Positions 47,594 through 62,174 of a stretch of 64,000 bases of DNA are shown one piece after another. The notes below the pieces were generated by a model. That model searched no databases, was not told the origin of the DNA, and saw only the letters and a program-made list of their open reading frames with translations. The DNA is from Geodermatophilaceae bacterium NBWT11 (GTDB lineage Bacteria > Actinomycetota > Actinomycetes > Mycobacteriales > Geodermatophilaceae): positions 1,550,001 through 1,614,000 of the forward strand of contig CP043652.1 of NCBI GenBank assembly GCA_014218215.1. The letters are read 5' to 3'. Positions within the stretch are counted from its first letter, which is position 1. Each line of letters opens with the position of its first letter. The position numbers and the translations under genes were made by a program.

Positions 47594-47611
47594 GTCAACT
47601 CATGTGTTGAC
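47594..47611. promoter_or_regulatory. GTCAAC-N6-GTTGAC operator, copy 1 (thiolase promoter)
   Basis: GTCAAC TCATGT GTTGAC, a perfect inverted repeat 51 bases before the thiolase ATG. One of five such sites, all upstream of genes in this island. Confidence 0.85.
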
Positions 47612-47617
47612 GACGGT

Positions 47618-47635
47618 CCCGGCAGAGCTGCCGGG
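47618..47635 (+). other. Leader hairpin of the thiolase gene
   Basis: CCCGGCAG (47618-47625) and CTGCCGGG (47628-47635) form a perfect small stem about 10 bases before the ribosome-binding site (GAGAGGAG at 47646-47653). It could fine-tune translation; function unknown. Confidence 0.4.
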
Positions 47636-47661
47636 CCCCTGTGACCGAGAGGAGTCGCGAC

Positions 47662-48804
47662 ATGCGCGACGCAGTCATCGTCGAGGCCGTCCGCACGCCC
47701 GTCGGCAAGCGCAACGGGGGCCTGTCCGGCGTCCACCCCACCGAGCTGTCGGCCCACGTGCTGAAGTCCCTCGTCTCCCGCGCCGGGGTCGACCCGGTGC
47801 TGGTCGACGACGTGATCTGGGGCTGTGTCTCCCAGGTCGGTGAGCAGACCTACGACATCGCCCGCAACGCGGTGCTCTCCGCCGGCTGGCCCGAGAGCGT
47901 CCCCGGCACCACCGTGGACCGCCAGTGCGGCTCCTCCCAGCAGGCCGTGCACTTCGCCGCCGCCGGGCTGGTCGCCGGGCACTACGACGTCGTCGTCGCC
48001 GGTGGTGTGGAGTCGATGTCCCGCGTGCCGATGGGCTCCTCCACCCAGGGCCAGGACCCGCTGGGCCAGGTCTACCGCGACCGCTACGACGGCGTGTCCC
48101 CCAACCAGGGCGTCGGCGCGGAGCTGATCGCCGAGAAGTGGGGCCTGTCGCGCACCCAGCTCGACGAGTTCGCCATCCGTTCGCACGAGCGCGCCGCCAC
48201 CGCCCAGGACGAGGGCCGCTTCGACGCCCAGATCGCCCCGGTCGACGCCCCTGAGGGCCGGGTGACCCAGGACGAGGGCATCCGCCGCGGCGGCACCGTC
48301 GAGGGCCTCGCCGGGCTCAAGACCCCCTTCAAGGAGGACGGCGTCGTCTCCGCGGGCAACGCCAGCCAGATCTCCGACGGCTCGGCCGCGCTGCTCATGA
48401 TGACCGCCGAGAAGGCCGCCGAGCTGGGCCTGAAGCCCATCGCCCGGGTGCACAGCGTCGCGCTGGCCGGCGACGACCCGGTCAAGATGCTCACCGCCCC
48501 CATCCCGGCGACCAAGAAGGTGCTCGAGCGCTCCGGCCTGCGGCTGGACGAGATCGGCGTCTTCGAGATCAACGAGGCCTTCGCCCCCGTCCCGCTGGCC
48601 TGGCAGGCCGAGATCGGCGGCGACGAGAAGCTGCTCAACCCCCTCGGCGGCGCCATCGCCCTGGGCCACCCCCTGGGCGGCTCCGGCGCCCGCATCATGA
48701 CCACGATGCTGTTCCACATGCGCGACAACGGGATCCGCTACGGCCTGCAGTCGATGTGCGAGGGCGGCGGCCAGGCCAACGCCACCGTGCTCGAGCTCCT
48801 CTGA
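47662..48804 (+). CDS. Thiolase (acetyl-CoA C-acyltransferase)
   Basis: Thiolase of 380 residues that cleaves 3-oxoacyl-CoA in beta-oxidation. Acylated Cys89 is in DRQCGSSQQA; a second active-site triad region is FEINEAFAPVPLAW (about 306-320), ALGHPLGGSGAR (His about 337) and a C-terminal Cys in MCEGGGQA (about 370). The signature IARNAVLSAGWPESVPG and GGVESMSRVPMG place it in the degradative FadA/acyl-CoA acyltransferase group rather than the sterol carrier type. ATG at 47662 is preferred over a GTG at 47641 because a GAGAGGAG site precedes it and homology begins there (MRDAVIVEA). It is preceded by a GTCAAC-N6-GTTGAC operator. Confidence 0.92.
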   Translation: MRDAVIVEAVRTPVGKRNGGLSGVHPTELSAHVLKSLVSRAGVDPVLVDDVIWGCVSQVGEQTYDIARNAVLSAGWPESVPGTTVDRQCGSSQQAVHFAAAGLVAGHYDVVVAGGVESMSRVPMGSSTQGQDPLGQVYRDRYDGVSPNQGVGAELIAEKWGLSRTQLDEFAIRSHERAATAQDEGRFDAQIAPVDAPEGRVTQDEGIRRGGTVEGLAGLKTPFKEDGVVSAGNASQISDGSAALLMMTAEKAAELGLKPIARVHSVALAGDDPVKMLTAPIPATKKVLERSGLRLDEIGVFEINEAFAPVPLAWQAEIGGDEKLLNPLGGAIALGHPLGGSGARIMTTMLFHMRDNGIRYGLQSMCEGGGQANATVLELL

Positions 48805-48822
48805 CCGCCTCCACCGCGCCGT

Positions 48823-48916
48823 GAGCGTTGATCAGGGTCCCTGATCGAAGTCCGTCCTCCCCCACGATCGTTCACGGGGGAGGACGGACTTCTGTGCAGG
48901 ACCCTGATCAACGCTC
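48823..48916. repeat. Long hairpin element, family C copy 2 (bidirectional terminator)
   Basis: Outer arms GAGCGTTGATCAGGGTCC (48823-48840) and GGACCCTGATCAACGCTC (48899-48916) are perfect over 18 bp; inner arms AAGTCCGTCCTCCCCC (48848-48863) and GGGGGAGGACGGACTT (48876-48891) are perfect over 16 bp. It separates convergent thiolase and esterase genes. The arm 15-mer GCGTTGATCAGGGTC is shared with 14256-14270. Confidence 0.85.
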
Positions 48917-48919
48917 CGG

Positions 48920-49861
48920 TCAGGCGAGCACGGCGCGAAGGTGCGTCCCGAGCCAGGCGGTGAGCTCGGCGGCCTCGGGCAGGGCGCCGGCCATCCACCA
49001 GAAGCCGTGGATCGTGCCCGGGACGGCGTGCAGCGTGACCGGCACCCCGGCGGCCTCCAGGGCGTGCGCGTAGTCCACGCCCTCGTCGCGCAGCGGGTCG
49101 AACTCCGCCACCACCAGCGTCGTCGGCGGCAGCCCGGCCAGGTCGGTGGCCAGCAGCGGGGCGGCCTCCGGGGTCGCCGGGGCGCCGGCGAGGTGGTGGT
49201 CCCAGAACCAGTCCAGCGACGCCGTCGTCATGGAGAAGTCCGCGGCGTTGTCGACCAGCGAGGGCGTCGTGCGCCCGCGGGGTGGCGCCAGCGTCGGGTA
49301 GACGAGCAGCTGGCGGACGACGGCCGGCCCGCCGCGGTCCCGCAGCGTCCGGCTGGTGCTCGCGGCCAGGGTCGCGCCGGCACTGTCGCCGGCCAGCACC
49401 AGCCGGTCGGGGTCGGCGCCCAGCTCGGCGGCGTGCGCGACCGCCCAGCGGACGGCGGCCACGCAGTCCTCCTGCGGCCCGGGGAACGGCGTCTCCGGGG
49501 AGAGCCGGTACTCCACCGACACCACGACCACCCCCGCGGCGACGGCCAGTCCGCGACAGGCCCGGTCGGCCACCGCGACGCCGCCGGCCACGAAGCCACC
49601 GCCGTGGAAGTAGACGACCAGCGGCAGCGGGGACCCCGGCGACGGGTGGTAGACCCGCACGGGGAGCCGACCCTCCACCAGCAGGTCGCGGACGTCGGCC
49701 ACCTCGGTGCGCGGGCCGCCGATCCGGGTCGAGGCCGACACCGAGACCCGGGCCTGCAGCACGCTCATCCGGTCGAAGGGCTGCACGCCCTGGGCCGCGA
49801 AGGCCTCCAGCAGGGCGCGCACCCCGGCGTTGGGCGTCCCGGACCAGTCCACAGCGACCAC
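48920..49861 (-). CDS. HSL-family alpha/beta hydrolase (carboxylesterase)
   Basis: Esterase of 313 residues from the hormone-sensitive lipase family. The HGGGF oxyanion motif is at 86-90; nucleophile Ser160 is in AGDSAGA; the acid lies in VAEFDPLRDEG (Asp about 255) and the histidine in TIHGFWWM (about 286). No signal peptide. The start GTG at 49861 lies 14 bases from the edge of a GTCAAC-N6-GTTGAC operator, and the gene is divergent from the Baeyer-Villiger monooxygenase. It is the natural candidate to hydrolyse the ester or lactone formed by that monooxygenase. Confidence 0.9.
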   Translation of the reverse strand: MVAVDWSGTPNAGVRALLEAFAAQGVQPFDRMSVLQARVSVSASTRIGGPRTEVADVRDLLVEGRLPVRVYHPSPGSPLPLVVYFHGGGFVAGGVAVADRACRGLAVAAGVVVVSVEYRLSPETPFPGPQEDCVAAVRWAVAHAAELGADPDRLVLAGDSAGATLAASTSRTLRDRGGPAVVRQLLVYPTLAPPRGRTTPSLVDNAADFSMTTASLDWFWDHHLAGAPATPEAAPLLATDLAGLPPTTLVVAEFDPLRDEGVDYAHALEAAGVPVTLHAVPGTIHGFWWMAGALPEAAELTAWLGTHLRAVLA

Positions 49862-49875
49862 CTGTCTCCGATTGC

Positions 49876-49893
49876 GTCAACACCTACGTTGAC
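49876..49893. promoter_or_regulatory. GTCAAC-N6-GTTGAC operator, copy 2 (esterase/BVMO divergent region)
   Basis: GTCAAC ACCTAC GTTGAC. Its right half forms the -35 (TTGACA, 49889-49894) of the monooxygenase promoter. Confidence 0.88.
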
Positions 49894-49917
49894 ACTGCTC
49901 GTGCGCCACCTTACCGT
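49889..49917 (+). promoter_or_regulatory. Predicted BVMO promoter with consensus elements
   Basis: TTGACA (49889-49894), a 17-base spacer and TACCGT (49912-49917), the ideal actinobacterial vegetative arrangement. The -35 hexamer is part of operator copy 2, so repressor binding would exclude RNA polymerase. The ATG lies 39 bases after the -10. Confidence 0.82.
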
Positions 49918-49955
49918 CGGCGGTGCACCAACGGAGCAGACGACGGGAGCACCCC

Positions 49956-51596
49956 ATGAGCAGCACCCAGACCCACCACGACGTCGACGTCGTGGTGGTC
50001 GGCGCCGGGTTCGCCGGCCTCGCCATGCTCCGCGAGCTGCGCGACGAACGCGGGATGAGCGTGCGGGTCCTGGAGGCCGGCGACGACGTCGGCGGCGTCT
50101 GGTACTGGAACCGCTACCCCGGTGCCCGCTGCGACGTGGACTCCACCGACTACAGCTACACCTTCTCCCCCGAGCTGGACGAGGAGTGGAACTGGTCCGA
50201 GCGCTACGCCACGCAGCCGGAGATCCTCCGCTACGTGCACCACGTCGCCGACCGGTTCGACCTGCGTCGCGACGTCACCACCGGGGCCCGCGTCGCCACC
50301 GCCACCTGGGACGACGACACCGCCCACTGGGACGTGACCTGCGAGGACGGCACCACCGCCCGTGGCCGCTACCTGGTGATGGCCACCGGCTGCCTGTCGG
50401 CGGTCAAGCGGCCCCAGGTCGAGGGCATCGAGGACTTCACCGGCCAGGTGCTGCACACCGCCGACTGGCCGCGCGAGCCCGTGGACCTGGCCGGCAAGCG
50501 GGTCGGCGTGATCGGCACCGGGTCCTCCGGCATCCAGGTCATCCCGCGCATCGCCCCCGAGGTGGCGGAGCTGGTGGTCTTCCAGCGCACCCCCGCCTTC
50601 AGCGTGCCGGCCCACCACCAGGTGCTCACCGACGCCGAGCGGGCGGCGCTGAAGCTCTCGCTGCCCGAGCGCCGGGAGATGCTGCGCAACAGCCCCACCG
50701 GGCTGTCGGTGCCGGTCACCCGCCGCGGCGCCCTGGACGACGACGACGCCACCCGCGAGCAGCACTACGAGGAGCAGTGGCACTCCGCCGGCTTCGGGTT
50801 CCTGCTGGCCTACAACGACCTGCTCATCAGCCACGAGGCCAACCGGACGGCGTCGGACTTCATCCGCGGCAAGATCGCCGAGCGCGTCACCGACCCGGCG
50901 CTGGCCGAGAAGCTGTCGCCGCACACCTACCCCTACGGCGCCAAGCGGCCGTGCGTGGACACCGGCTACTACGAGACGTTCAACCGGGAGAACGTCACCC
51001 TGGTCGACATCGCCGCGGCGCCGCTGACCCGGGCGACGGCCACCACGCTGGAGACGACGGACGCCGCGTACGACCTCGACGTCATCGTCTTCGCCACGGG
51101 CTTCGACGCGATGACCGGCTCGCTGCTCAAGCCGACCATCACCGGCCGGGACGGCGTCACGCTTCAGGAGCACTGGGCCGGCGGACCGCTGACCTACCTG
51201 GGCCTGATGACCGCCGGCTTCCCGAACATGTTCGTCATCGCCGGGCCCGGGTCGCCGTCCCTGCTGGGCAACGTGATGGTCTCCATCGAGCAGCACGTCG
51301 ACTGGGTCTCGGCCCTGCTGGTGGACTCCGAGGCCGCGGGCACCCCGGTCATCGAGGCTACCGAGGAGGCCGAGCGCGCCTGGGTCGACCGCGTCAACGC
51401 CGCAGCCGCCCCGACCCTCTACATGGAGGCCGCGTCGTACTACCTGGGCGCGGAGATCGAGGGCAAGCCGCGGGTGTTCATGCCCTACGCCGGTGGCCTG
51501 CGCCGCTACCGCCGGGAGTGCGACGAGGTGGCCCGCGAGGGCTACCGCGGCTTCCGCCGCAGCCCCGAGCCCAGCACGGACCTCCAGCCGGCCTGA
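49956..51596 (+). CDS. Type I Baeyer-Villiger monooxygenase
   Basis: FAD- and NADPH-dependent monooxygenase of 546 residues that inserts oxygen beside a carbonyl, turning ketones into esters or lactones. First dinucleotide motif GAGFAGL (16-22), second GTGSSG near 187-192, and between them the BVMO fingerprint F-x-G-x-x-x-H-x-x-x-W-P at 161-172 (FTGQVLHTADWP). The conserved RYPGARCDVDS (about 54-64) and VIVFATGFDAMTG (about 372-384) agree with cyclohexanone monooxygenase-type enzymes. The ATG at 49956 follows a GACGGGAG site. Regulated with the divergent esterase through an operator and a strong promoter. The specific ketone is unknown. Confidence 0.93.
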   Translation: MSSTQTHHDVDVVVVGAGFAGLAMLRELRDERGMSVRVLEAGDDVGGVWYWNRYPGARCDVDSTDYSYTFSPELDEEWNWSERYATQPEILRYVHHVADRFDLRRDVTTGARVATATWDDDTAHWDVTCEDGTTARGRYLVMATGCLSAVKRPQVEGIEDFTGQVLHTADWPREPVDLAGKRVGVIGTGSSGIQVIPRIAPEVAELVVFQRTPAFSVPAHHQVLTDAERAALKLSLPERREMLRNSPTGLSVPVTRRGALDDDDATREQHYEEQWHSAGFGFLLAYNDLLISHEANRTASDFIRGKIAERVTDPALAEKLSPHTYPYGAKRPCVDTGYYETFNRENVTLVDIAAAPLTRATATTLETTDAAYDLDVIVFATGFDAMTGSLLKPTITGRDGVTLQEHWAGGPLTYLGLMTAGFPNMFVIAGPGSPSLLGNVMVSIEQHVDWVSALLVDSEAAGTPVIEATEEAERAWVDRVNAAAAPTLYMEAASYYLGAEIEGKPRVFMPYAGGLRRYRRECDEVAREGYRGFRRSPEPSTDLQPA

Positions 51597-51605
51597 CCGG
51601 CCCAC

Positions 51606-51660
51606 CGACGAGAAGCGCCCTTCCTGTCAGGAGTCCTGACAGGAAGGGCGCTCCTCGTCG
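51606..51660. repeat. 27-bp hairpin element, family B copy 2 (bidirectional terminator)
   Basis: Left arm 51606-51632 and right arm 51634-51660 are complementary with one mismatch (CGACGAGAAGCGCCCTTCCT.. against its reverse complement), an unusually long stem. It lies between the convergent BVMO and livF genes. Shares arms with 8351-8392 and the solo arm at 20053-20067. Confidence 0.85.
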
Positions 51661-51674
51661 TGCTGGGGGGTGGG

Positions 51675-52433
51675 TCAGGCGCCGAGGTAGGCGTCGACCA
51701 GGTTGCCGCCGCGCATCTCCTCGGCGGTGCCCTCGAGGACGATCCGGCCCTGGCGGAGCACGAAGGCGCGCTCCACGACCTCCAGGGCCAGGCCGGCGTT
51801 CTGCTCGACCAGGACCACGCTCATGCCGCCGGCGGCGATCAGCTCGCGGAGGGCGTCGAACAGCGAGGCCACGATGGCCGGGGCCAGGCCGGTGGAGGGC
51901 TCGTCGAGCAGCAGCAGCGACGGGTCGGTCATCAGGGCCCGGCCGAAGGCCAGCATCTGCTGCTCACCGCCGGACATCGAGCCGGCCCGGCGGTCGAGCA
52001 TCGCCGACAGCGCCGGGAAGAGCTCGAGCACCCGGCTGCGCAGCTCGGCGGCCCGGGCAGCCGGCAGCGCCTGGCCGCCCATGGCCAGGTTGTCCTCCAC
52101 GCTCATGTCGGCGAACAGCTCGCGGCCGCTGGGCACGTGGCCCACGCCGGCGCGGGTCATCGCGTGGTCGGGCAGCCCGGTGACGTCGCGGCCGAGCAGG
52201 GTGACGGTGCCGCCCTGGGGCCGGACGACGCCGGCGATCGCACGCAGCAGGGTGGTCTTGCCGGCCCCGTTGGCGCCCAGGACCCCGACCACCTCGTTGC
52301 GGGCCACGCTCAGCGAGACCTCGTGGAGCACCCGGAGGGCGCCGTAGCCGGCGGTGAGGCCGGCGACCTCGAGGGCCGGGCCGGTGCCGGAGGTGTCCCG
52401 CTCGCGGGTGGCCCCGCCGCCGAAGAGCTTCAC
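51675..52433 (-). CDS. livF: Branched-chain amino acid-type ABC transporter ATPase (LivF type)
   Basis: ABC ATPase of 252 residues. Walker A GANGAGKTT (about 54-62), the Q-loop, the signature MSGGEQQMLAFGRAL (about 152-166), Walker B SLLLLDEPSTGLAP (about 170-183) and the H-loop region VVLVEQNAGLALE (about 202-214) are all present. AxxEQNxxLAL and the short length identify LivF. A 20-residue N-terminal extension precedes the family start; the GTG at 52433 overlaps the upstream stop by four bases. It works with the permease-ATPase fusion, LivH-type permease and binding protein of the same operon. The substrate may be an organic acid or ketone-related compound rather than an amino acid, given the neighbours. 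Confidence 0.92.
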   Translation of the reverse strand: MKLFGGGATRERDTSGTGPALEVAGLTAGYGALRVLHEVSLSVARNEVVGVLGANGAGKTTLLRAIAGVVRPQGGTVTLLGRDVTGLPDHAMTRAGVGHVPSGRELFADMSVEDNLAMGGQALPAARAAELRSRVLELFPALSAMLDRRAGSMSGGEQQMLAFGRALMTDPSLLLLDEPSTGLAPAIVASLFDALRELIAAGGMSVVLVEQNAGLALEVVERAFVLRQGRIVLEGTAEEMRGGNLVDAYLGA

Positions 52434-54313
52434 GGGGTCACGTCCTCGGGGACGTCGGCCGAGCCGACACCCAGGCCCACGCCGGAGCCCAGGTAGGCCC
52501 GGATCACCTCGGGATGCCGCAGGACCTCGGTGGGTGCGCCGGTGAGAATGGTGGCTCCTCTGTCCATGACGACGATCTCGTCGGCCAGGTCGACGATGGC
52601 CTTGATGACGTGCTCGATGCCGGCGACGGCGTCGACCCCGAACGCGGGCATCCGGCGGATGGCGTCCCGGACGACCTCGAGCTCCTCGTCGCTCATCCCG
52701 GCCATGACCTCGTCGAGCAGGATCAGCGACGGGCCCAGCGCCAGGGCGCGGCCGAGCTCGACCATCCGGCGGTGCCCGACGGCCAGGGTGTCCGAGGCGT
52801 GGAAGCGGATCTCCTCCAGCCCCAGCACCTGCACCACCCAGGCCGCCTGCTCCTGGGCCTGGCCGCGGTGCCGGCCGCCCAGGGCTGCCAGGTACACGTT
52901 CTCCCAGACGGTCATCGAGGCGAAGGGCCGCGGGATCTGGAAGGTGCGGGCCAGGCCGCGGCGGGCGAGCCGGTGCGCCGGGGCGCCGCCGACGACGGGC
53001 TGGCCGTCGAAGACGATCGAGCCCTTCGACGGGGTGACGACGCCGGCGATCGCGTTGAACAGGGTGGTCTTGCCGGCGCCGTTGGCCCCGATGATGAACA
53101 CCGTCTGGCCGCGGCGGACGGTGAAGTCGACCTCGCGCAGCGCCTGCACGCCGCCGAAGGTGACCCCCACGTCGCGGCAGACCAGCAGCTCGGCGTCGGT
53201 GTCGGCCGGGCTGCGGTGGGCGTGCGCCGCGGTGAGCCGCTTCTCCAGCTCCGCCTCGGTCGGCAGGTCGGTGGTCCCGCGGACGATCTCCCGGCGCAGC
53301 CAGCCGACCTTGTTGGCCAGCGAGACGATGCCGCCGGGCAGGAAGACGGTGACCAGCACGATGAGCAGGCCGAACAGGGCCAGCTGGTAGTCGGGGAACG
53401 CGCTGGCGAGCTGGTCGCTGACGATCGTCAGCACGACCGCACCGATCAGCGGACCCCACAGCGTGCCGATGCCCCCGGCGAGCACCAGCACGATGACCTG
53501 CAGGTCCAGCGCCGGGTTGAACACCGTGGAGGTGTCGATGAAGGCCCGGTTGTAGGCGACCATGCCGCCGACGAGGGCGGGCATCAGGGCGCTGAGCGTG
53601 AAGGTGACGACCTTGACCCGGGTGGTGGCCACGCCCATCGCCTCGGCGACCTGCTCGTCGTCCCGCACCGCCATCGCGCGCAGGCCGAACGGCGAGCGGG
53701 CCATGAAGGCGTTCACCGCGAAGGCCAGGACGGCGACGCCGGTGATGCCCAGCAGGACCGGCTTCTGGGCGATGACGCCGGGCACGACCAGACCGGTGGA
53801 GCCACCGGTCAGCTCCCACTGGGACAGCAGCAGCGAGACGATGTAGGCCAGCCCGAACATGCCGAGGGCGAAGTAGATGCCCTGCAGCCGGAGCATGACC
53901 CAGCCGATGGGCACGGCGACGACGGCGCCGCCGATGCCGCCGAGCACCGCGGCCAGGAACCAGGGCACGTCCGCGTGGATGATCAACAGCGCGGTGGCGA
54001 ACGCCCCGAAGCCGAAGAAGACCACCTGGCCGAAGCTGATGTAGCCGGTGAACCCGCTGATGATGTTGAAGGCGTACGCCAGCGCCACGAACATCGCGAC
54101 GTCGATCGCCAGCTGGTTCTGCGACAGCGAGCCCAGCAGCCCCCAGGACAGGAACGCCGCGACGAGGACGGCGAGCAGCCCGATCTGGAGGACGTCGCTG
54201 CGGGTGGAGGGCAGCCGTCCGCCGGTGTGCCGGGGCCCGCGGGACCGGCTCATCAGCCCGGCGACCAGGGAGCCGCCGGCGGGGCGGTCGGTGGAGGGGG
54301 TCGGGTCGGTCAT
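52430..54313 (-). CDS. livMG: Fused branched-chain-type ABC permease-ATPase (LivM-LivG)
   Basis: Single 627-residue polypeptide joining two proteins that are often separate. Residues about 40-325 are a LivM permease with about eight to ten helices and the signature LAYAFNIISGFTGYISFGQVVFFGFGAFATALL. Residues about 370-600 are a LivG ATPase with Walker A GANGAGKTT (about 406-414), AHRLARRGLARTFQIPRPFASMTVWENV, the weak signature LAVGHRRMVELGRALA and Walker B SLILLDEVMAGMSDEEL. The linker (about 325-370) is charged. ATG at 54313 overlaps the livH stop in ATGA. The LSGGQ position reads VGHRR, a divergence from the usual motif seen also in other LivG members. Confidence 0.9.
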   Translation of the reverse strand: MTDPTPSTDRPAGGSLVAGLMSRSRGPRHTGGRLPSTRSDVLQIGLLAVLVAAFLSWGLLGSLSQNQLAIDVAMFVALAYAFNIISGFTGYISFGQVVFFGFGAFATALLIIHADVPWFLAAVLGGIGGAVVAVPIGWVMLRLQGIYFALGMFGLAYIVSLLLSQWELTGGSTGLVVPGVIAQKPVLLGITGVAVLAFAVNAFMARSPFGLRAMAVRDDEQVAEAMGVATTRVKVVTFTLSALMPALVGGMVAYNRAFIDTSTVFNPALDLQVIVLVLAGGIGTLWGPLIGAVVLTIVSDQLASAFPDYQLALFGLLIVLVTVFLPGGIVSLANKVGWLRREIVRGTTDLPTEAELEKRLTAAHAHRSPADTDAELLVCRDVGVTFGGVQALREVDFTVRRGQTVFIIGANGAGKTTLFNAIAGVVTPSKGSIVFDGQPVVGGAPAHRLARRGLARTFQIPRPFASMTVWENVYLAALGGRHRGQAQEQAAWVVQVLGLEEIRFHASDTLAVGHRRMVELGRALALGPSLILLDEVMAGMSDEELEVVRDAIRRMPAFGVDAVAGIEHVIKAIVDLADEIVVMDRGATILTGAPTEVLRHPEVIRAYLGSGVGLGVGSADVPEDVTP

Positions 54314-55176
54314 GCCGAGGCCTTCCTCGAGAGCAGCCCGGCAGGCTTGAACAGCATCACCAGGATGAGCATCAGGTAGGGCGCCGCCGCCTGGACCACG
54401 GCGCCGAGCTCGTAGCCGGACACCGTCTGGACGACGCCGACCAGGAGCGCGCCGACGGCGGCCCCCTTGTAGTTGCCGAGCCCGCCCAGGGCGATGACCA
54501 CGAACGCCACGATGGTGAAGTTGGTGGCCGCCTGGGGGGCGATCGGCTGGGTCATCACCAGGAGCATCCCGGCGGCCGCGGCGACGGCCGCACCCACGCT
54601 GAAGCCGACGAGCCGGAGCCTGCGGGGGTTGATCCCGCAGGCCCCGGCCCCGAGCGGGCTCTGCGCCTGCGCCCGGAGGCTGGTGCCCGACCGGGTGCGG
54701 GTGAGCCAGAACGCGATGCCCAGGGTGATGACCGCGGCGAGCACGACGCCGACGATCAGCGCCAGGGAGAACCGGAGGGGACCCACCACGACCGCCGACT
54801 GGAGGAAGTCGATGGTGCGGTAGTCCGAGCCCCAGTACTGCTGGCCGAGGTTGATCAGGATGTAGGACAGGCCGAACGTGGCCATCAGGGTCAGCAGCTC
54901 GTGCTGCTTCGCCGTCCCCTTGATCCGCTCGATGACCGCCCACTGCACGAACGCGCCGAGGGCGGCAGCGGCCACCATCACGACCACCAGCCCGAGGAAC
55001 GGGTTGACCCCGGCGCCGTACAGGCTCCAGACCCCGAGCCCGCCGAGGACGATGAACGCCCCGTGGGCCAGGTTGACGATGCCCATGACACCGAAGACCA
55101 GGTTCAGCCCCTGCGCCATGAGCAGGTAGAAGCCACCCAGCAGGATGCCGTTGAGCACCACCTGTACGTACGTCAC
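54310..55176 (-). CDS. livH: Branched-chain amino acid-type ABC transporter permease (LivH)
   Basis: Inner-membrane permease of 288 residues with about eight helices. Family signature QVVLNGILLGGFYLLMAQGLNLVFGVMGIVNLAHGAFIVLGG at the start (helix with NxVFGVMGxxNxAHG), WxxR-type loop, and the conserved GLGNYKGAAVGALLVGVVQTV near residue 230. Start is GTG at 55176, 32 bases after the binding-protein stop. Forms the transmembrane pore with the LivM half of the next gene. Confidence 0.92.
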   Translation of the reverse strand: MTYVQVVLNGILLGGFYLLMAQGLNLVFGVMGIVNLAHGAFIVLGGLGVWSLYGAGVNPFLGLVVVMVAAAALGAFVQWAVIERIKGTAKQHELLTLMATFGLSYILINLGQQYWGSDYRTIDFLQSAVVVGPLRFSLALIVGVVLAAVITLGIAFWLTRTRSGTSLRAQAQSPLGAGACGINPRRLRLVGFSVGAAVAAAAGMLLVMTQPIAPQAATNFTIVAFVVIALGGLGNYKGAAVGALLVGVVQTVSGYELGAVVQAAAPYLMLILVMLFKPAGLLSRKASA

Positions 55177-55208
55177 GACCCGGTCCTCCTCAGCTCACGC
55201 GGTGCGGG

Positions 55209-56399
55209 TCAGTAGGGCAGCTGTGCGGCGACGGCACCCGCCTCGTCGGAGGGGAAGACCACCGCCTGGGCGCCGTCCTGGTACTGGAAGAGGATCGGGG
55301 AGTAGCCGGTCTGGACGCCGGTCTCGTCGACGGAGTAGGTGCCGATGACCGTGTCGAACGAGCCGTCGTGGAGCGCGGTGTTGACGGCCTCCTTGTCGGT
55401 GCTGCCGGCCTCCTCGATGGCGGCGGCGAGCACCTGGACCGTGGCGTACGCGCCGGCGGCCTGGCTGTTCACCGGGGTGTCGTAGGCCTCGTCGTAGCCC
55501 TGCACGAACTCCTCGCTGCCCTCGAAGCCCAGGCTCTCGGAGAACTCGCTGTAGCCGATGGCACGGGCCGACAGCTCACCGAGGGAGTCGGCGAAGGCCG
55601 GGTCCGAGGCGGTGGGCGAGGCGATGATCGCGGGGCGGAAGCCGCCCTGGTCCATGGCCCGGGTGAGGCCGATGGAGTCCTGGATCGCGGAGCACTCGAC
55701 GACGACCTCGGGGTCGCCCTCGGCGATGCGCAGCGCGGTGGAGGAGAAGTCGCTGGTGGAGGCGGCGTACTCGATGCGGTCGACCAGCGTGCCGCCGGCG
55801 TCCTCGATGCCGTCCTCGACGCCGTCGCAGATCGCGGAGAAGGCGTCCAGGTCGTTGTTGACCAGCGTGATCCGGGTGTAGCCGTTCTCCGCGGCGAAGG
55901 CCGGGACGTCGGCCAGGACGGTGTAGCCCGGGGTGAGACCGGCCATCACGTTCCACTCGGTGCCCTCGAACACCGCCGGGGAGGACGTCTGGCTGTGCGC
56001 CATGGGGGTCTGGTACCGCTCGGCGAGCTGCGCGGCCGGGCCGCCGAGGGCGCTGCCGTAGGGGCTGAGCAGGGCGTCGACCTCGTCGGTGCCGAGGAAC
56101 TCGGTGTAGAGCCGACCGACGACGGCGGCGTCGCTCTGGTCGTCCTGCAGGTCGAGCTCGAGCTGACGGCCGAGCACCCCACCGTCGGCGTTGATCTGGT
56201 CCACGGCCAGCTGGTAGCCGTTGGAGACGTTGGTGCCCGAGGAGGCGTAGGCGCCGGTCAGGGAGACGGTGGCCCCGATGGTGATGGGCTCGTCGGACGA
56301 GCCGCCCCCTGCGGAGCCGTCGTCGGACCCACCGCCGCACCCCGCGAGGACGGTGGCGGAGACCGCGATGCCGACGGCGACCTTCGTGGACCTGCTCAT
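55209..56399 (-). CDS. Branched-chain amino acid-type ABC substrate-binding lipoprotein (LivK-like)
   Basis: Type I periplasmic-binding lipoprotein of 396 residues. Lipobox VLAG-C21, then a Gly/Ser-rich linker. The fold has TIGATVSLTGAYASSGTNVSNGYQLAVDQINADGGVLGRQLELDLQDDQSD-type opening (positions about 42-90), TPMAHSQTSSPAVFEGTEW and a C-terminal IGTYSVDETGVQTGYSPILFQYQDGAQAVV. ATG at 56399 is preferred: AGGAG precedes it at proper distance and the signal peptide starts there. First gene of the importer operon. Ligand unknown: Liv-type binders also take aromatic acids, amides or urea. Confidence 0.92.
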   Translation of the reverse strand: MSRSTKVAVGIAVSATVLAGCGGGSDDGSAGGGSSDEPITIGATVSLTGAYASSGTNVSNGYQLAVDQINADGGVLGRQLELDLQDDQSDAAVVGRLYTEFLGTDEVDALLSPYGSALGGPAAQLAERYQTPMAHSQTSSPAVFEGTEWNVMAGLTPGYTVLADVPAFAAENGYTRITLVNNDLDAFSAICDGVEDGIEDAGGTLVDRIEYAASTSDFSSTALRIAEGDPEVVVECSAIQDSIGLTRAMDQGGFRPAIIASPTASDPAFADSLGELSARAIGYSEFSESLGFEGSEEFVQGYDEAYDTPVNSQAAGAYATVQVLAAAIEEAGSTDKEAVNTALHDGSFDTVIGTYSVDETGVQTGYSPILFQYQDGAQAVVFPSDEAGAVAAQLPY

Positions 56400-56539
56400 G
56401 GACTGCTCCTGGGGTGCTGGCCCGGCGACGGTGCCGGGTCGGGTGGGGGGTGGGGGCGTGCTGGTGGAGGTGGTCCGAGTCTCTGGGGCGGGCCACCGGG
56501 AGGTCAAGGAGTTCTTCGAGTTAAACGTAGTGCACTTCG

Positions 56540-56551
56540 GTTTCCCGAAAC
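56540..56551. promoter_or_regulatory. Small dyad GTTTCCCGAAAC in the livK/SDR gap
   Basis: GTTTC and GAAAC flank CC in a 154-base gap between the binding-protein start (56399) and the SDR stop (56554). It could be a regulatory site of the importer operon; the rest of the gap shows nothing clear. Confidence 0.3.
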
Positions 56552-56553
56552 AG

Positions 56554-57381
56554 TCAGAGACCGGCTGCCGCGACCTCGGCGGCCGAGGGGGAGGCGATCG
56601 AGGCGTCGCCGGCGGTCATCCCGCCGTCGACGGGCAGGACCTGGCCGGTGAGGTAGGCCGCGTCGTCGGACAGCAGGAAGGCGATGACCCGGCCGACGTC
56701 GTCGGGGGTGCCGAAGCGGCCCATCGGGGTGCGGGCGAGGACGGCGTCGCGGAAGCGGGGCACCGAGAAGGTGCGGCGGGTCATCCCGGTCTCGATGTAG
56801 CCGGGGCTGACCGCGTTGACCCGGATGCCCTGCGGGGCCAGCTCGAGGGCAGCGACCCGGGTGAGCATGGCGACCCCGCCCTTGGACGCGGCGTAGGAGG
56901 CCACGTTGAGGGTGGCGAAGTGGGCCATCACCGAGGCCAGGTTGACGATCGAGCCGGTCGCACCGCGGGCGAGCAGTTCCCTCGCCAGCAGCTGGGTCAT
57001 GGTCGTCGTGCCGGTCAGGTTGACCGCGATGACCCGGTCCCACTCGTCGTCGGGCATGTCGGTGAAGGCGACCCGGCTGGCCACGCCGGCGCTGTTCACC
57101 AGGCCGTCGACGAGGACCCCGCGCCCGCGCAGGCCGTCGAAGAGCGCCTGCGCCGCGGCCCGGTCGGTGACGTCGACCTCGACCGCCTCGGCCGAGCCGC
57201 CGGCGGCGGTGGCCGCCTCGGCGACGGCGGTGGCGCCGTCGAGGTCACGGTCGGCGACGACGACGTGCGCCCCCCGGGCGGCGAGCACCACGACGGCACC
57301 GGCACCGATCCCAGACGCTCCCCCGGTCACGAGCACGGTGCGCCCGTCGAGGGACGGCGCGGTCGGGCCGGGCTGGCTCAT
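56554..57381 (-). CDS. Short-chain dehydrogenase/reductase
   Basis: NAD(P)-dependent oxidoreductase of 275 residues. Cofactor motif TGGASGIGAG (about 19-28), acidic residue after the second strand (VADRDLDG, suggesting NAD preference), NSAGV (about 95-99), catalytic serine in LASVMAH (about 147), then Tyr-x-x-x-Lys in SYAASKGG (about 161-168) and the PGYIETGMT tail. The ATG at 57381 has GAGGAG upstream. It has its own promoter and a GTCAAC-N6-GTTGAC operator 86 bases before the start. It may oxidise the hydroxy product released by the BVMO/esterase pair or reduce the carbonyl substrate. Confidence 0.9.
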   Translation of the reverse strand: MSQPGPTAPSLDGRTVLVTGGASGIGAGAVVVLAARGAHVVVADRDLDGATAVAEAATAAGGSAEAVEVDVTDRAAAQALFDGLRGRGVLVDGLVNSAGVASRVAFTDMPDDEWDRVIAVNLTGTTTMTQLLARELLARGATGSIVNLASVMAHFATLNVASYAASKGGVAMLTRVAALELAPQGIRVNAVSPGYIETGMTRRTFSVPRFRDAVLARTPMGRFGTPDDVGRVIAFLLSDDAAYLTGQVLPVDGGMTAGDASIASPSAAEVAAAGL

Positions 57382-57441
57382 CGGGGTCTCCTCGTCGTCC
57401 GCAGGGTGCTCAGGCGTGGCTCAGGTCCTCCACTGCGGAGC

Positions 57442-57471
57442 AAGCTAGGTGACCCGGACCACGCCCGTCAA
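57442..57471 (-). promoter_or_regulatory. Predicted SDR promoter overlapping operator copy 3
   Basis: On the minus strand TTGACG (57471-57466) and TAGCTT (57447-57442) are separated by 18 bases. The -35 lies within the operator 57467-57484. Confidence 0.68.
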
Positions 57472-57484
57472 CCCTCCTGTTGAC
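57467..57484. promoter_or_regulatory. GTCAAC-N6-GTTGAC operator, copy 3 (SDR promoter)
   Basis: GTCAAC CCTCCT GTTGAC, 86 bases upstream of the SDR start. Confidence 0.85.
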
Positions 57485-57527
57485 AGCCGGCGGGATCGTT
57501 CCCGGGCCGTGACCCGAACGTCGGGCA

Positions 57528-57568
57528 CGACGAGGGGCCGGACGACCCGCAGGTCGTCCGGCTCGTCG
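57528..57568 (-). terminator. Hairpin terminator after the acyl-CoA dehydrogenase operon
   Basis: GCCGGACGACC (57537-57547) and GGTCGTCCGGC (57552-57562) pair perfectly around CGCA, extended by CGACGA/TCGTCG outside. It lies 12 bases downstream of the tandem NTF2-like gene stop at 57580 on the minus strand. Confidence 0.8.
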
Positions 57569-57579
57569 GAGCGGGGTCG

Positions 57580-58343
57580 TCAGCGCCGGCTGCGGGACCT
57601 CAGCAGGCCGTGCCGGTCGCTGACCACGACGCCGCCGGAGACGACGCCGTCGGCCACCGTGACCAGCCCGGCCAGGCCGAGACGGACCGGTCCCCCGTCG
57701 GCCGGCAGCTCGTCGGTGCCCAGGAACTCCCCGGTCTGGGTCGCGGCGAACGCGACCGTGGAGCCGGCGGAGAACAGCTCGGCGACCTCCAGCCCCCGGG
57801 GTCGCACCAGCGCAGCCGTCAGCCCGTCGTCCCAGGTCACGCTGTCGAAGCCGGGCTGGGCCGACCCCAGCCAGGCCCGGACGACGTCCTCGGCGGCCGG
57901 GTCGGGCGCCGCCGGCTGCGTCGTCCAGGGCGCCACCATCGGCGGGCCCACGGTGTCGGGCACCCCGTCGGCGAGCTGCCGCCGGCGGGCCGCGTAGTCC
58001 TCCTGGGTCCAGTTCTCGGTGAGCACCTCGCCGTCCCAGGCGAACAGCGCGACACCGGTCCAGGCCGCCCCGCGCAGGTCGTGCCGCACCGAGGCGCCGT
58101 GCTCGGTGAAGTGCAGCGCGAGCCGGTCCTCGGTGAGCACCAGGGAGTGCACCGTCAGCTGCAGGCCGGGGAACTGCTCGAGCTGGCCGACCGTGGCCGG
58201 GGTGTAGGCCCCGAGCCCGTCGAGCTCGACGTCCCCGATGTGCACCTGGTAGCCCGGCGCCATGATCTGCGGCGGCACCGTGGCATCGGCCCGGTCCAGC
58301 CAGTCGATCGTGAACCGCTGGGCCAGTCTCGCGAGGTCGTGCA

Positions 58344-58344
<1 letters not shown>
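57580..58344 (-). CDS. Protein with two NTF2/SnoaL-like domains
   Basis: Protein of 254 residues. The first half (about 1-130; ARLAQRFTIDWLDRADATVPPQIMAPGYQVHIG, then AWDGEVLTENWTQEDY) is a SnoaL/ester-cyclase-like NTF2 fold. The second half (about 145-250) repeats the pattern (EDVVRAWLGSAQPGFDSVTW, LVTVADGVVSGGVVVSDR). Such folds bind hydrophobic molecules and include ketosteroid isomerase and cyclases. The ATG start shares a base with the acyl-CoA synthetase stop (TGATG), so it is translated with it. A role in isomerising or binding an acyl substrate is possible but not shown; no catalytic Asp can be assigned. Confidence 0.78.
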
Positions 58345-59879
<1,535 letters not shown>

Positions 59880-59882
59880 GCC

Positions 59883-61079
59883 TCAGTAGCTCTTGGGCAG
59901 GCCCAGGCTGTGCTGGGCGACGTGGTTGAGGACCATCTCGCGGCTCACCGGGGCCGTCTTGAACATCCGCGCGACGAACCACAGGTCGGCCAGGCCGTAC
60001 TCGTAGCTCAGCCCGTTGCCGCCGTGCACCTGGATGGCCTGGTCGAGGGCCTTCACCGCGGCGTCACCGGCGGCGAACTTGGCGATGTTGGAGGCCTCGG
60101 CGGCGTCCAGCCCGGCGTCGGACATCTCGGCGGCGCGCATGGTCATCAGCCGGGCGAGCTCGACGGCGATGTAGGACTCGGCCAGCGGGTGGGCCACGCC
60201 CTGGTGCGCCCCGATCGGGGTCTTCCAGACGGTGCGCTCGTTGGCGTACTGCGCACCCTTGGCCAGGGCGTACCGGGCGATGCCGTTGGCCATGCAGGCC
60301 GCGGCGACGCGCTCGGGGTTCAGCCCGGCGAAGACCTGCTTGAGCCCCTCGCCCTCGGTGCCGACCAGGCCGGCGCGCTCCACCGGGACGTCGTCGAAGA
60401 ACGTCATGAACTGCTTCTCGGGCAGCTGCAGCGCCGAGTCCAGCTGCTGGAAGGTCAGCCCGGGGGCATCGGTGTCGCAGATGAACAGCGACAGCGTGTG
60501 CCGGCCGTCGGGACCGGGCTCGGCGTCGCGGGCCACCACCAGCAGCGCCTGGCACTCGTCCACGCCCGAGGTCCAGTACTTCTGACCGCGCAGCCGCCAG
60601 CCGCCGTCGCCGTCCTTGTGCGCGGTGGTGGTGATCTTGTGGGTGTTGGAGCCGGCGTCGGGCTCGGTGATGGCGAAGGCCATCCGGAACGTGCCGTCGG
60701 CGATCCCGGGCAGGTACTTCTGCTTCTGCTCGGGCGTGCCGTGCGCGGTGAGCACGGTGCCGGCGATGGCCGGGCTGATCACGACCATGAACATCGGGCA
60801 GCCCTGGCTGGCCATCTCCTCGATGACCACCGCCAGGTCGGCCAGCCCGCCGCCCCCGCCGCCGTACTCCTCGGGCAGGTGGACGCCGAGGAACCCGGCC
60901 TTGCCCATGTCCGACCAGAGCGCGTCGGCCTTCTCGCCCTTGCCGACGACCTCCTGGAAGTAGGACCGGCCGTAGCTGCCGACGAGCTGCCCGACGGCCT
61001 CGCGGAGGTCCCGGCGCTCCTGGGTGGTGTCGCTGATCCGCGAGCCCTTGCCGGGCAGACCGACCGGGGTTCCGTTCAC
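59883..61079 (-). CDS. Acyl-CoA dehydrogenase
   Basis: FAD enzyme of 398 residues that introduces the first double bond in an acyl-CoA. N-terminal helical domain with LGVHLPEEYGGGGGGLADLAVVIEEMA (about 65-90), middle beta domain with AFAITEPDAGSN (about 134-145) and HKITTTAHKDGDGGWRLRGQKYWTSG, and a C-terminal helical domain with AIQVHGGNGLSYEYGLADLWFVAR (about 355-378). The usual EGTSE-type catalytic loop reads FKTAPVSREMV here, as in a branch of FadE proteins. The start is GTG at 61079 with GAGGAG upstream. Promoter -35/-10 and an operator lie just before it. First gene of a three-gene operon with the CoA ligase and the tandem NTF2 protein. Confidence 0.92.
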   Translation of the reverse strand: MNGTPVGLPGKGSRISDTTQERRDLREAVGQLVGSYGRSYFQEVVGKGEKADALWSDMGKAGFLGVHLPEEYGGGGGGLADLAVVIEEMASQGCPMFMVVISPAIAGTVLTAHGTPEQKQKYLPGIADGTFRMAFAITEPDAGSNTHKITTTAHKDGDGGWRLRGQKYWTSGVDECQALLVVARDAEPGPDGRHTLSLFICDTDAPGLTFQQLDSALQLPEKQFMTFFDDVPVERAGLVGTEGEGLKQVFAGLNPERVAAACMANGIARYALAKGAQYANERTVWKTPIGAHQGVAHPLAESYIAVELARLMTMRAAEMSDAGLDAAEASNIAKFAAGDAAVKALDQAIQVHGGNGLSYEYGLADLWFVARMFKTAPVSREMVLNHVAQHSLGLPKSY

Positions 61080-61100
61080 GGGGTGCTCCTCTGTTGGTTC

Positions 61101-61118
61101 GTCAACGCTGCCGTTGAC
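61101..61118. promoter_or_regulatory. GTCAAC-N6-GTTGAC operator, copy 4 (acyl-CoA dehydrogenase promoter)
   Basis: GTCAAC GCTGCC GTTGAC, 22 bases from the start codon, overlapping the -10 element and predicted transcription start. Confidence 0.88.
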
Positions 61119-61145
61119 GGTAGGGAGTGGCCTGGGCCACGTCAA
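61117..61145 (-). promoter_or_regulatory. Predicted promoter of the acyl-CoA dehydrogenase operon
   Basis: Minus-strand TTGACG (61145-61140), 17-base spacer, TACCGT (61122-61117). The -10 touches operator copy 4, so repression would be by steric block. Confidence 0.82.
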
Positions 61146-61274
61146 GCGATGACATCGCGGTCCTCCGGACCGCACCGCACCAGGTGCCGGGTGGCGTGCG
61201 CCGAGCGGGACGGCCACTCCTGGTCGGGAGACCCTGCGGGCCCCCGCGCCTGCGGAGCGGCGGCGCTCCGCGCA

Positions 61275-62120
61275 TCACCAGTCGTAGAAGCCCCGGCCGG
61301 ACTTCACGCCCAGCTCGCCGGCGGCGACCTTGTCCACGAGCAGCTGCGGCGGGGCGAACTGCGGGCCCAGCGCGTTCTCCAGGTTGCGGGCGATGTGCAG
61401 CCGGACGTCGAGGCCCACGATGTCGGTGAGCCGCAGCGGACCGACCGGGTGCCGGTAGGCCAGCTGGATCGCGCGGTCGATGTCGGCGGGCTCGCCGACG
61501 CCCTGCTCGACCATCCGGATGGCCTCCAGCGCGGCGACGACGTCCAGCCGGCTGGTGGCGAAGCCCGGGGCGTCGGCGACGACGGCGGACTCCTTCCCGA
61601 TGCCGGCCACCGCGGCCAGCGCCGTCTCCAGCGTGGCGGGGCTGGTGCGCGCGCCGCGGACCACCTCGACCACCGGGATGGACCAGACCGGGTTGAAGAA
61701 GTGCAGGCCGAGGAAGTCCTCGGGCCGGGCCAGGTCGGCGGCCAGGGTGTCGATGGACAGCGCACTGGTGTTGCTGGCCAGCACCGCGGGCCGGCGGGCC
61801 TCGCAGGCGGCCAGCACCCGGCGCTTGAGGTCCAGGTCCTCCGGCACGGTCTCCACGACCAGGTCCAGGCCCTCGGGCAGCCGGTCGGCCGAGGTCACGT
61901 GCTCGATCGCGGCGTCGAGGCCGGCGGCGGTCTCCTCCGACAGCTTGCCGCGGCGGACCCCGGCGGCCGCGGCATCGGCGATCTCCCGGCGGACCGCGGC
62001 CATCCGGTCGGCGTCGGGCTCGACCACCGTCGTCCGGGCCCCGGTGACGGCGAAGACGTAGGCGATGCCCACCCCCATCGTCCCGGCGCCGACGACGCCC
62101 ACCCCCTGCTGCGCTGCCAC
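61275..62120 (-). CDS. 3-hydroxyacyl-CoA dehydrogenase family protein
   Basis: NAD-dependent dehydrogenase of 281 residues, similar in build to the protein at 41102-41953. Motifs: GVVGAGTMGVGIAYVFAVTGA (about 7-27), VVETVPEDLDLKRRVL, LASNTSALSI (about 112-121), LGLHFFNPVWSIPVVEVV (active-site His about 138) and the helical tail with DAPGFATSRLDVVAALEAIRMVEQGVG and HPVGPLRLTDIVGLD, ending in KSGRGFYDW. GTG at 62120 is preferred over an ATG at 62168: a GAGGAGG site precedes it and the Rossmann motif then starts near residue 6. Divergent from the enoyl-CoA hydratase with operator copy 5 between. Confidence 0.9.
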   Translation of the reverse strand: MAAQQGVGVVGAGTMGVGIAYVFAVTGARTTVVEPDADRMAAVRREIADAAAAGVRRGKLSEETAAGLDAAIEHVTSADRLPEGLDLVVETVPEDLDLKRRVLAACEARRPAVLASNTSALSIDTLAADLARPEDFLGLHFFNPVWSIPVVEVVRGARTSPATLETALAAVAGIGKESAVVADAPGFATSRLDVVAALEAIRMVEQGVGEPADIDRAIQLAYRHPVGPLRLTDIVGLDVRLHIARNLENALGPQFAPPQLLVDKVAAGELGVKSGRGFYDW

Positions 62121-62156
62121 CTGGTCCTCCTCGTCGAGCCCTGGCTGTACCGTCGC

Positions 62157-62174
62157 GTCAACGTACACGTTGAC
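62157..62174. promoter_or_regulatory. GTCAAC-N6-GTTGAC operator, copy 5 (hydratase/dehydrogenase divergent region)
   Basis: GTCAAC GTACAC GTTGAC in the 89-base divergent gap; TACCGT at 62148-62153 is a possible plus-strand -10 just beside it. Confidence 0.87.

What the first reader, a model, noticed from the sequence alone, without database searches (positions are those of the whole stretch)
47594..62174. Five perfect GTCAAC-N6-GTTGAC palindromes define a previously unmarked regulon
Copies lie at 47594-47611, 49876-49893, 57467-57484, 61101-61118 and 62157-62174. All are intergenic and upstream of genes of one catabolic island: thiolase, esterase/Baeyer-Villiger monooxygenase, SDR, acyl-CoA dehydrogenase-CoA ligase-tandem NTF2, and 3-hydroxyacyl-CoA dehydrogenase/enoyl-CoA hydratase. 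A fixed 12-base pattern should appear by chance about 0.004 times in 64 kb of uniform composition, so five intergenic hits are not random. I found none elsewhere in the window. A single TetR gene (62979-63635) ends the island, making it the likely binder. I know of no described operator with exactly this form, but I could not search.
Basis: partly seen in the sequence, partly recalled or inferred. Interest (0 to 1): 0.93.

Follow-up and report, generated by a model that had tools for sequence, protein, structure and literature searches.

The report
TetR regulon sharing one DNA operator
A soil bacterium carries a scattered set of breakdown genes, each preceded by the same 18-letter DNA switch, and the switch appears together with one kind of repressor protein in unrelated bacteria, which points to an undescribed shared control circuit for a catabolic pathway.

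Summary
Five perfect GTCAAC-N6-GTTGAC palindromes lie at the stated coordinates (shuffle mean 0.01). The 4.59 Mb genome (genus Klenkia) holds only seven; the two outside the window precede a second acyl-CoA dehydrogenase/CoA-ligase pair and a remote luciferase-like monooxygenase. Among 298 genomes of the order, 11 of 13 with the TetR have three or more perfect sites, against 2 of 285 without. The pairing recurs beside TetRs only 36-57% identical in Frankiaceae, Acidimicrobiales, Halieaceae, sphingomonad and Rhodococcus plasmids. It fades at about 35% identity, where recognition-helix residue D59 also stops (37 of 37 rows against 0 of 27). New here: the half-site GTTGAC doubles as a -35 box; a TANNNT -10 box follows at promoter spacing on 29 site sides against 1.5 expected. 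At other sites the operator overlaps a -10 box; half the sites fit neither. Best reading: a steric TetR repressor, probably released by a pathway acyl-CoA, controlling oxidation and beta-oxidation of an unidentified substrate. Binding and inducer are untested. No paper found describes this operator.

The parts
47594..47611 (.). operator 1, upstream of the thiolase gene; fits neither strict promoter geometry
   Evidence: perfect match; thiolase downstream
47662..48804 (+). thiolase (acetyl-CoA C-acyltransferase); ORF opens at 47641, ATG with ribosome-binding site at 47662
   Evidence: Pfam Thiolase_N/C; sequence
48920..49861 (-). alpha/beta-hydrolase esterase (hormone-sensitive lipase type)
   Evidence: Pfam Abhydrolase_3
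49876..49893 (.). operator 2 between divergent esterase and BVMO genes; outward half-site is the -35 box of a BVMO promoter (TTGACA-17-TACCGT)
49956..51596 (+). Baeyer-Villiger monooxygenase, closest solved relatives phenylacetone and steroid monooxygenases; start chosen by eye
   Evidence: Pfam FMO-like; PDB 1w4x 1e-175, 4ap3 2e-168
51675..52400 (-). LivF-type ABC ATPase, start approximate
   Evidence: Pfam ABC_tran in the ORF 51675-53819; this stretch matches at 85% in L023
52430..54319 (-). LivM permease and LivG ATPase in one reading frame, start approximate
   Evidence: Pfam BPD_transp_2 and ABC_tran in one ORF
54310..55176 (-). LivH-type permease (name by position)
   Evidence: 89-95% identical frame at the same place in L037, L039, L040 and L023; not run against Pfam
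55209..56399 (-). ABC substrate-binding protein (Peripla_BP_6), start chosen by eye
   Evidence: weak PDB matches, several to Leu/Ile/Val-binding proteins
56554..57381 (-). short-chain dehydrogenase, first gene of the transporter operon
   Evidence: Pfam adh_short
57467..57484 (.). operator 3 upstream of SDR-ABC operon; half-site is -35 (TTGACG-18-TAGCTT on - strand)
57580..58347 (-). SnoaL/NTF2-like protein (first half matches SnoaL; second half unmatched), start approximate
   Evidence: Pfam SnoaL; no PDB match at E 0.01
58344..59879 (-). AMP-forming acyl-CoA ligase
   Evidence: Pfam AMP-binding
59883..61079 (-). acyl-CoA dehydrogenase (start set at GTG with ribosome-binding site)
   Evidence: Pfam Acyl-CoA_dh; sequence
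61101..61118 (.). operator 4; left edge completes the -10 box of an acyl-CoA dehydrogenase promoter (TTGACG-17-TACCGT on - strand)
61275..62120 (-). 3-hydroxyacyl-CoA dehydrogenase (start set at GTG with ribosome-binding site)
   Evidence: Pfam 3HCDH; sequence
62157..62174 (.). operator 5 between divergent HCDH and ECH genes; fits neither strict promoter geometry
62210..62974 (+). enoyl-CoA hydratase
   Evidence: Pfam ECH_1
62979..63635 (-). TetR-family regulator, proposed binder of all sites
   Evidence: Pfam TetR_N and TetR_C_24; co-occurrence, recognition helix, tree, model mean pLDDT 84

Best explanation
A TetR repressor (62979-63635) binds as a dimer to GTCAAC-N6-GTTGAC operators and blocks RNA polymerase. 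Many operators are built into a promoter: either the outward GTTGAC half is the -35 box, or the operator's edge completes the -10 box. Seven operators in this genome switch about nine transcription units together: thiolase; esterase; Baeyer-Villiger monooxygenase; SDR plus Liv-type importer; acyl-CoA dehydrogenase-CoA ligase-SnoaL; 3-hydroxyacyl-CoA dehydrogenase; enoyl-CoA hydratase; a second acyl-CoA dehydrogenase-CoA ligase pair; and a remote LLM monooxygenase. Inferred: a CoA thioester made by the regulated ligases releases the repressor. The pathway would take up a compound, oxidise an alcohol to a ketone (SDR), insert oxygen (BVMO), hydrolyse the ester or lactone (esterase), and degrade the acid by beta-oxidation. 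Shown by sequence: sites, co-occurrence, promoter overlap at about half the sites, helix signature. Inferred: binding, repression, inducer, substrate.
For: Co-occurrence: 3 or more perfect sites in 11 of 13 TetR-positive and 2 of 285 TetR-negative genomes (Fisher 1.8e-16, genomes not independent); the 13 hold 50 perfect sites and 1 reversed control. A site with at most 1 mismatch within 1.5 kb of the regulator: 24 of 37 loci at 35% identity or more, 1 of 28 below. Same motif beside 36-57% homologues in Frankiaceae, Acidimicrobiales (4 of 6 loci have it on the contig), Halieaceae, Sphingopyxis, Sphingobium and Rhodococcus plasmids. Recognition helix: D59 in 37 of 37 rows against 0 of 27, R60 36 against 7, A61 35 against 2. 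One clade, support 98/96. Promoter geometry: TANNNT at 17-21 nt after GTTGAC on 29 sides, 1.5 expected; 26 of the 29 point to a regulon homologue; 9 further sites complete a -10 box whose -35 is TTGAC at normal spacing. The remote LLM is supported independently: in G290 its 81% relative lies in the TetR cluster behind its own site (L114:4625). Fold neighbours include acyl-CoA-bound regulators: FadR with stearoyl-CoA, AibR with isovaleryl-CoA, and KstR2.
Against: No binding data. G005 keeps TetR and thiolase but no site. L045's genome has a 52% TetR and no perfect site. G293 has two 35-37% homologues and its only site is on another contig. 13 of 37 loci had no site within 1.5 kb; 7 of these 13 have a perfect one 1.9-7 kb off, the rest none, mismatched ones, or one farther off or on another contig. 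In some distant genomes the perfect counts barely exceed the reversed control (G052 2 against 1, G053 1 against 1, G054 4 against 2). No site with two or fewer mismatches lies upstream of the TetR gene here, so autoregulation is not visible. 35 of 69 sites, including three of this genome's seven, fit neither strict promoter geometry. A second TetR of the clade could share the sites. Fold neighbours also include regulators with other ligands, such as DarR and AmtR, so the acyl-CoA inducer is weakly supported.
Confidence: 0.82

Rival explanations
1. The palindromes are bound by the second TetR of the same clade (G000:C1:2239439-2240077, 49% identical), alone or together with the island's TetR.
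For: It keeps a DRASLY recognition helix and sits beside a second BVMO gene with a one-mismatch site whose spacer equals that of window operator 2. Both may recognise one operator.
Against: In one search, 8 of 13 TetR-positive genomes list a single match, and 7 of those 8 still have three or more sites (G005 has none). Its own locus has only a degenerate site.
Confidence: 0.1
2. The palindromes are only back-to-back -35 boxes of divergent promoters, with no repressor involved.
For: TTGAC is the usual -35 sequence (recalled) and is read on both strands; two of five window sites lie between divergent genes.
Against: Only 1 of 69 sites has a -10 box on both sides. Three of five window sites are not between divergent genes, the unused half is still perfect, N6 spacing is fixed in this genome, and sites track one TetR. 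Because sites were selected as perfect, the perfection of the unused half is partly by construction; the spacing and TetR evidence is not.
Confidence: 0.03
3. The TetR is an activator, or the sites serve a different class of regulator that travels with the cluster.
For: Co-occurrence alone does not show who binds or in which sense; other regulators lie near some clusters (MerR and another TetR on Sphingobium pSH1; LysR on Sphingopyxis pSFD01).
Against: I saw no other regulator shared by the clusters, though not every gene of every cluster was identified. The TetR's recognition helix tracks the motif, and an operator overlapping -35 or -10 fits repression.
Confidence: 0.06

Closest known systems
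KstR2 (Rv3557c), TetR repressor of steroid ring catabolism in mycobacteria
   Same: Among the nearest folds (4w97, 24% identity) and sequences; controls CoA-dependent catabolic genes (recalled).
   Different: Operator recalled as AnCAAGnnCTTGnT, 14 bp with a two-base centre, not 6-6-6 (recalled, no call). About a quarter identical. Target genes of the window island are not the KstR2 set as recalled.
PfmR of Thermus thermophilus (3vpr) and FadR of Bacillus (3whb/3whc)
   Same: TetR regulators with similar sequence or fold; FadR is solved with stearoyl-CoA.
   Different: The 3vpr recognition helix lacks D-R-A in the alignment; operators differ (recalled).
AibR (5k7h, 5k7z), isovaleryl-CoA-responsive TetR
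   Same: Acyl-CoA effector, operator-bound structure, similar fold.
   Different: 20% identity; other pathway (recalled).
BkaR of mycobacteria (PMC3920632)
   Same: TetR repressor with a palindrome near CoA-catabolism genes.
   Different: Operator core GTTA(N)T(N4)A(N)TAAC (passages read).
EdcR of Caenibius (PMC8700777) and PA3973 of Pseudomonas (PMC9736018)
   Same: TetR regulators whose palindromes overlap or encompass a -10 box.
   Different: Operators TnnCnnTACnAnTnGTAnnGnnA and TGAATCC-GGATTCA (passages read).

Membership tests
TetR family regulators | TetR_N helix-turn-helix | tested here: met
   PF00440 1.5e-13, 50.8 bits above cutoff 24; all-helical model matching TetR-family structures
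TetR family regulators | palindromic operator bound by a dimer | not testable with these tools
   palindromes found; binding not testable
TetR_C_24 domain type | Pfam score above cutoff | tested here: met
   PF17932 60.6 bits, cutoff 26.4; that this type includes KstR2 is recalled
KstR2 orthologue | high identity to KstR2 | tested here: not met
   24% identity to 4w97 and 4w1u; three other TetRs score better by sequence
KstR2 orthologue | KstR2 operator | not tested
   KstR2 operator known only from recall; not searched
NCBIfam TetR equivalogs (SACE_7040, ScbR, FadR, FasR, MftR and others) | score above the curated cutoff | tested here: not met
   19 families listed, none reaches its cutoff (best 45.6 bits against 250)
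acyl-CoA-responsive repressor | binds a CoA thioester that releases DNA | not testable with these tools
   only fold similarity to FadR, AibR and KstR2, among others

The most novel reading that the evidence does not exclude
A deep TetR clade marked by a D-R-A-[ST]-LYYY recognition helix has kept one operator, GTCAAC-N6-GTTGAC, across Actinomycetota and Pseudomonadota while its target genes changed. Because the operator's outer half is itself a near-consensus -35 box, the regulator and its sites behave as a portable promoter-repressor module that can be placed before many different CoA-dependent catabolic genes, and the motif alone can predict such regulons in genomes that carry the clade.
Probability: 0.6. 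Interest if true: 0.62.

Novelty: new member of a known kind. Interest (0 to 1): 0.52.

Why it matters
It gives a testable operator, regulator and gene list for an uncharacterised catabolic pathway that contains a phenylacetone-monooxygenase-like BVMO, and it finds members (a second ACAD-ligase pair, a remote LLM monooxygenase) that gene neighbourhood would miss. More widely, it offers a protein-DNA specificity code (D59-R60-A61 with GTCAAC) that holds at 36-57% identity and across two phyla, so regulons of many unannotated TetRs could be read from sequence. The embedded -35 box would make the operator a ready-made repressible promoter for actinobacteria.

Tried and rejected
Mce3R was considered because its paper surfaced for both half-site strings; the strings proved to lie in PCR primers and no consensus is given (passages of PMC2277422). 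The motif Lcin1 of Nocardioides simplex (TCCCGGT[C/G]ACCGGGA; passages of PMC7593942) differs; its Lcin2 logo and the motifs of PMC7807495 (passages; detail in supplements) were not seen. PMC3511530 passages list other operators. AtuR of Pseudomonas has 13 bp inverted repeats by title only (reference seen); its sequence was not seen, so it is not excluded. Six one-string spellings of the motif gave 0 papers and six helix strings 0 papers. Searches returned listings (6 to 20 papers shown) in which I recognised no paper describing it. Only openly licensed PubMed Central text was searched; most subscription papers and RegPrecise-type resources were not.

The substrate could not be fixed: binding protein, ligase and ACAD gave general matches and SnoaL none. 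One-mismatch sites in the genome were listed (25 matches, 7 perfect and 18 with one mismatch, against 8 for the reversed control), but their genes were not examined apart from the site by the second TetR. Of 8 plasmid records with a TetR match I looked at the best 4, not at the four of 27-33% identity. The two TetR-negative genomes with three sites (G160, G251) were not studied beyond positions. A site in G023, which lacks the TetR, lies beside an ArsR-type gene and looks unrelated. TANNNT inside the N6 spacer was frequent, but one of its bases is fixed by the motif, so I gave it no weight. The de novo repeat listing was flooded by runs of N and largely cut; only visible rows were used. One search wrote a helper file and printed nothing.
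Full report
Observation. Five perfect GTCAAC-N6-GTTGAC palindromes are at 47594, 49876, 57467, 61101 and 62157 and nowhere else in the window (mean 0.01 in 100 shuffles). The window is G000:C1:1550001-1614000 of a 4,594,226-base genome, which holds seven perfect copies and none of the reversed control pattern. With spacers of 0 to 20 the genome has 12 matches, 7 of them at N6, and the control 1. Named relatives at 84-100% TetR identity place the genus as Klenkia, Geodermatophilaceae.

Genes. By Pfam the island has: thiolase; Abhydrolase_3 esterase; Baeyer-Villiger monooxygenase, closest to phenylacetone and steroid monooxygenases among solved structures; a Liv-type importer with SDR in front; acyl-CoA dehydrogenase (ACAD), AMP-forming CoA ligase and SnoaL; 3-hydroxyacyl-CoA dehydrogenase (HCDH); enoyl-CoA hydratase (ECH); and a TetR with a TetR_C_24 domain. 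The sixth site (G000 1626854) is 28 bp from a second ACAD, followed by a CoA ligase 48% identical to the first. The seventh (3922613) is 64 bp from a luciferase-like monooxygenase. In G290 an 81% relative of that monooxygenase lies inside the TetR cluster with its own site, which supports its membership.

Does the motif follow the TetR? In the genus, G001, G004, G007 and G008 (a 73% complete near-copy of this genome) have the TetR and 3 to 5 sites; G002, G003 and G006 have neither. G005 keeps the TetR (82%) next to the thiolase, but the rest of the island is absent and no site remains. In 298 genomes drawn from the order, the TetR (E at most 1e-25, 10 candidates scored per genome) is in 13. 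Of these, 11 have three or more perfect sites, as do 2 of the other 285 (means 3.85 and 0.27). The 13 hold 50 perfect sites and 1 reversed control. The two negatives with three sites are G160 and G251. Of 16 genomes reached through, 15 have at least one perfect site and 9 have three or more; four of the 16 show the same site positions as G001, G004, G007 and G008, so they are not independent. L045's genome has none. In some distant ones the count is close to the control: G052 2 against 1, G053 1 against 1, G054 4 against 2, G055 3 against 1. The TetR is rare: in 396 genomes of the phylum, besides this genome, only G674 and G696 have a relative at about 50% identity, and the remaining hits are at 34% or less. 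In 140 genomes of the Halieaceae record's family, 3 have it.

How far does it hold? I compared 65 TetR loci. A site with at most one mismatch within 1.5 kb was found at 24 of 37 loci with identity 35% or more and at 1 of 28 below. Of the 13 misses, 7 have a perfect site 1.9 to 7 kb off. The set contains two pairs of identical rows, so counts are slightly inflated. The motif occurs beside TetRs in Protofrankia and Frankia (57, 56%); in 4 of 6 Acidimicrobiales loci (48-50%), a fifth having sites only on another contig and the sixth none; in Halieaceae (49%, one of the two with one-mismatch sites, and a third genome with a perfect site); on a Rhodococcus ruber plasmid (41%); on Rhodococcus pR8L1 (40%, the perfect site lying in the last codons of the annotated TetR and before an ACAD); and on Sphingobium pSH1 (36%). 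On Sphingopyxis pSFD01 the best-matching TetR (47%) has no site within 1.5 kb, but a second TetR of the clade on the same stretch (43%) has a one-mismatch site just upstream and a perfect one 0.8 kb away. Conexibacter has only sites with one or two mismatches near its TetR. The targets vary but many are CoA-type catabolic genes; ACAD, ligase, SnoaL, HCDH and ECH recur most (which looked only for relatives of this island's proteins).

Protein side. In an alignment of 37 rows at 36% or more and 27 rows below 35% (one 35% row, L073, in neither set), D59 is in 37 against 0, R60 in 36 against 7, A61 in 35 against 2, F74 in 36 against 0, Y24 in 35 against 1. D59 to A61 open the recognition helix (model helix 60-66). 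A tree makes the 38 rows at about 35% and over one side of a branch with support 98/96, with the Halieaceae and Sphingopyxis rows nested among Acidimicrobiales, which suggests transfer between phyla (some long branches are flagged there). The AlphaFold model (mean pLDDT 84, 17-row alignment) is nearest to 3dcf, KstR2 and PfmR, with FadR, DarR, AmtR and AibR further down.

How it works. In 69 perfect sites from TetR-bearing loci and this genome, TANNNT starts 17 to 21 nt after the outward GTTGAC on 29 oriented sides; 1.5 were expected from the other positions (134 oriented sides with full flanks). Sites are related, so the Poisson value of 8e-27 overstates. That is TTGACN, a 16 to 20 bp spacer, then TANNNT, so the half-site reads as a -35 box. 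28 of 69 sites show it, 27 on one side and 1 on both, and 26 of the 29 sides point to a homologue of a regulon gene. With spacers of 16 to 19, 25 of 69 sites qualify. At 9 further sites, 8 of them ACAD promoters including window 61101, the operator's edge completes a -10 box (TANNGT) whose own -35 TTGAC is 17 or 18 bp upstream. So 34 of 69 sites fit one of two strict geometries and 35 fit neither. In this genome four of seven fit (49876, 57467, 61101 and the sixth site) and three do not (47594, 62157 and the seventh). In both geometries a bound dimer would cover a core promoter element, which argues for steric repression.

Inducer and substrate are inference. Some of the nearest solved regulators bind acyl-CoA, others do not, and two CoA ligases are in the regulon, so a CoA thioester of the pathway is the likelier inducer (about 0.6). 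SDR, BVMO, esterase, ligase and beta-oxidation genes together suggest a secondary alcohol or ketone, possibly cyclic; nothing here identifies it.

Literature. Searches and what was seen of each paper are listed under Tried and rejected. No paper seen describes this operator or this TetR clade; the held library is openly licensed PubMed Central only, so absence there is weak evidence.

On recount I corrected the number of single-TetR genomes in rival 1 (8 of 13), the overlap among genomes (four), the statement on start sites of operators 4 and 5, and added the near-control counts; the confidence was lowered from 0.83 to 0.82 for the last two.

Noticed in passing
G005:C24 (L054 10933-12842): A natural deletion: thiolase and TetR (82%) adjoin, the rest of the island and every perfect operator are gone. 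It is a ready strain for asking what the orphan TetR still does.
   Followed up: partly
G000:C1:2238445-2240077 (L056 9446-11084): A second TetR of the same clade (49%) with an enoyl-CoA hydratase and a second BVMO; its site GTCAACACCTACGTTGGC is followed directly by another GTTGAC.
   Followed up: partly
G198:C51:174852-175397 (L072): A second, broken TetR copy of the clade (three in-frame stops, changed recognition helix) with a perfect site about 1.1 kb away.
   Followed up: no
L058 3767-15597 (Sphingopyxis sp. FD7 plasmid pSFD01): Two TetRs of the clade (47% and 43%) flank one catabolic cluster with BVMO, SDR, ECH and ligase genes and several perfect or near-perfect sites; an LLM gene lies just outside.
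   Followed up: partly
window 41376-45323: One ORF with B12-binding, MeaB and methylmalonyl-CoA mutase domains, the layout of fused isobutyryl-CoA mutase (IcmF, name recalled). G005 has a long ORF on the same side of its thiolase, not compared.
   Followed up: no
window 52430-54319: LivM permease and LivG ATPase domains are in one reading frame, an apparent fusion.
   Followed up: no
L027 9258-9321: G023 (same family, no such TetR) has a perfect and a one-mismatch palindrome 46 bp apart at the start of an ArsR-type gene; probably a different regulator with a similar sequence.
   Followed up: partly
L018 646-2424: Directly upstream of the TetR and on its strand lie a VLRF1 release-factor-like gene, a rhodanese and a cysteine dioxygenase; the TetR may be transcribed with them, which would explain the missing autoregulatory site.
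   Followed up: no
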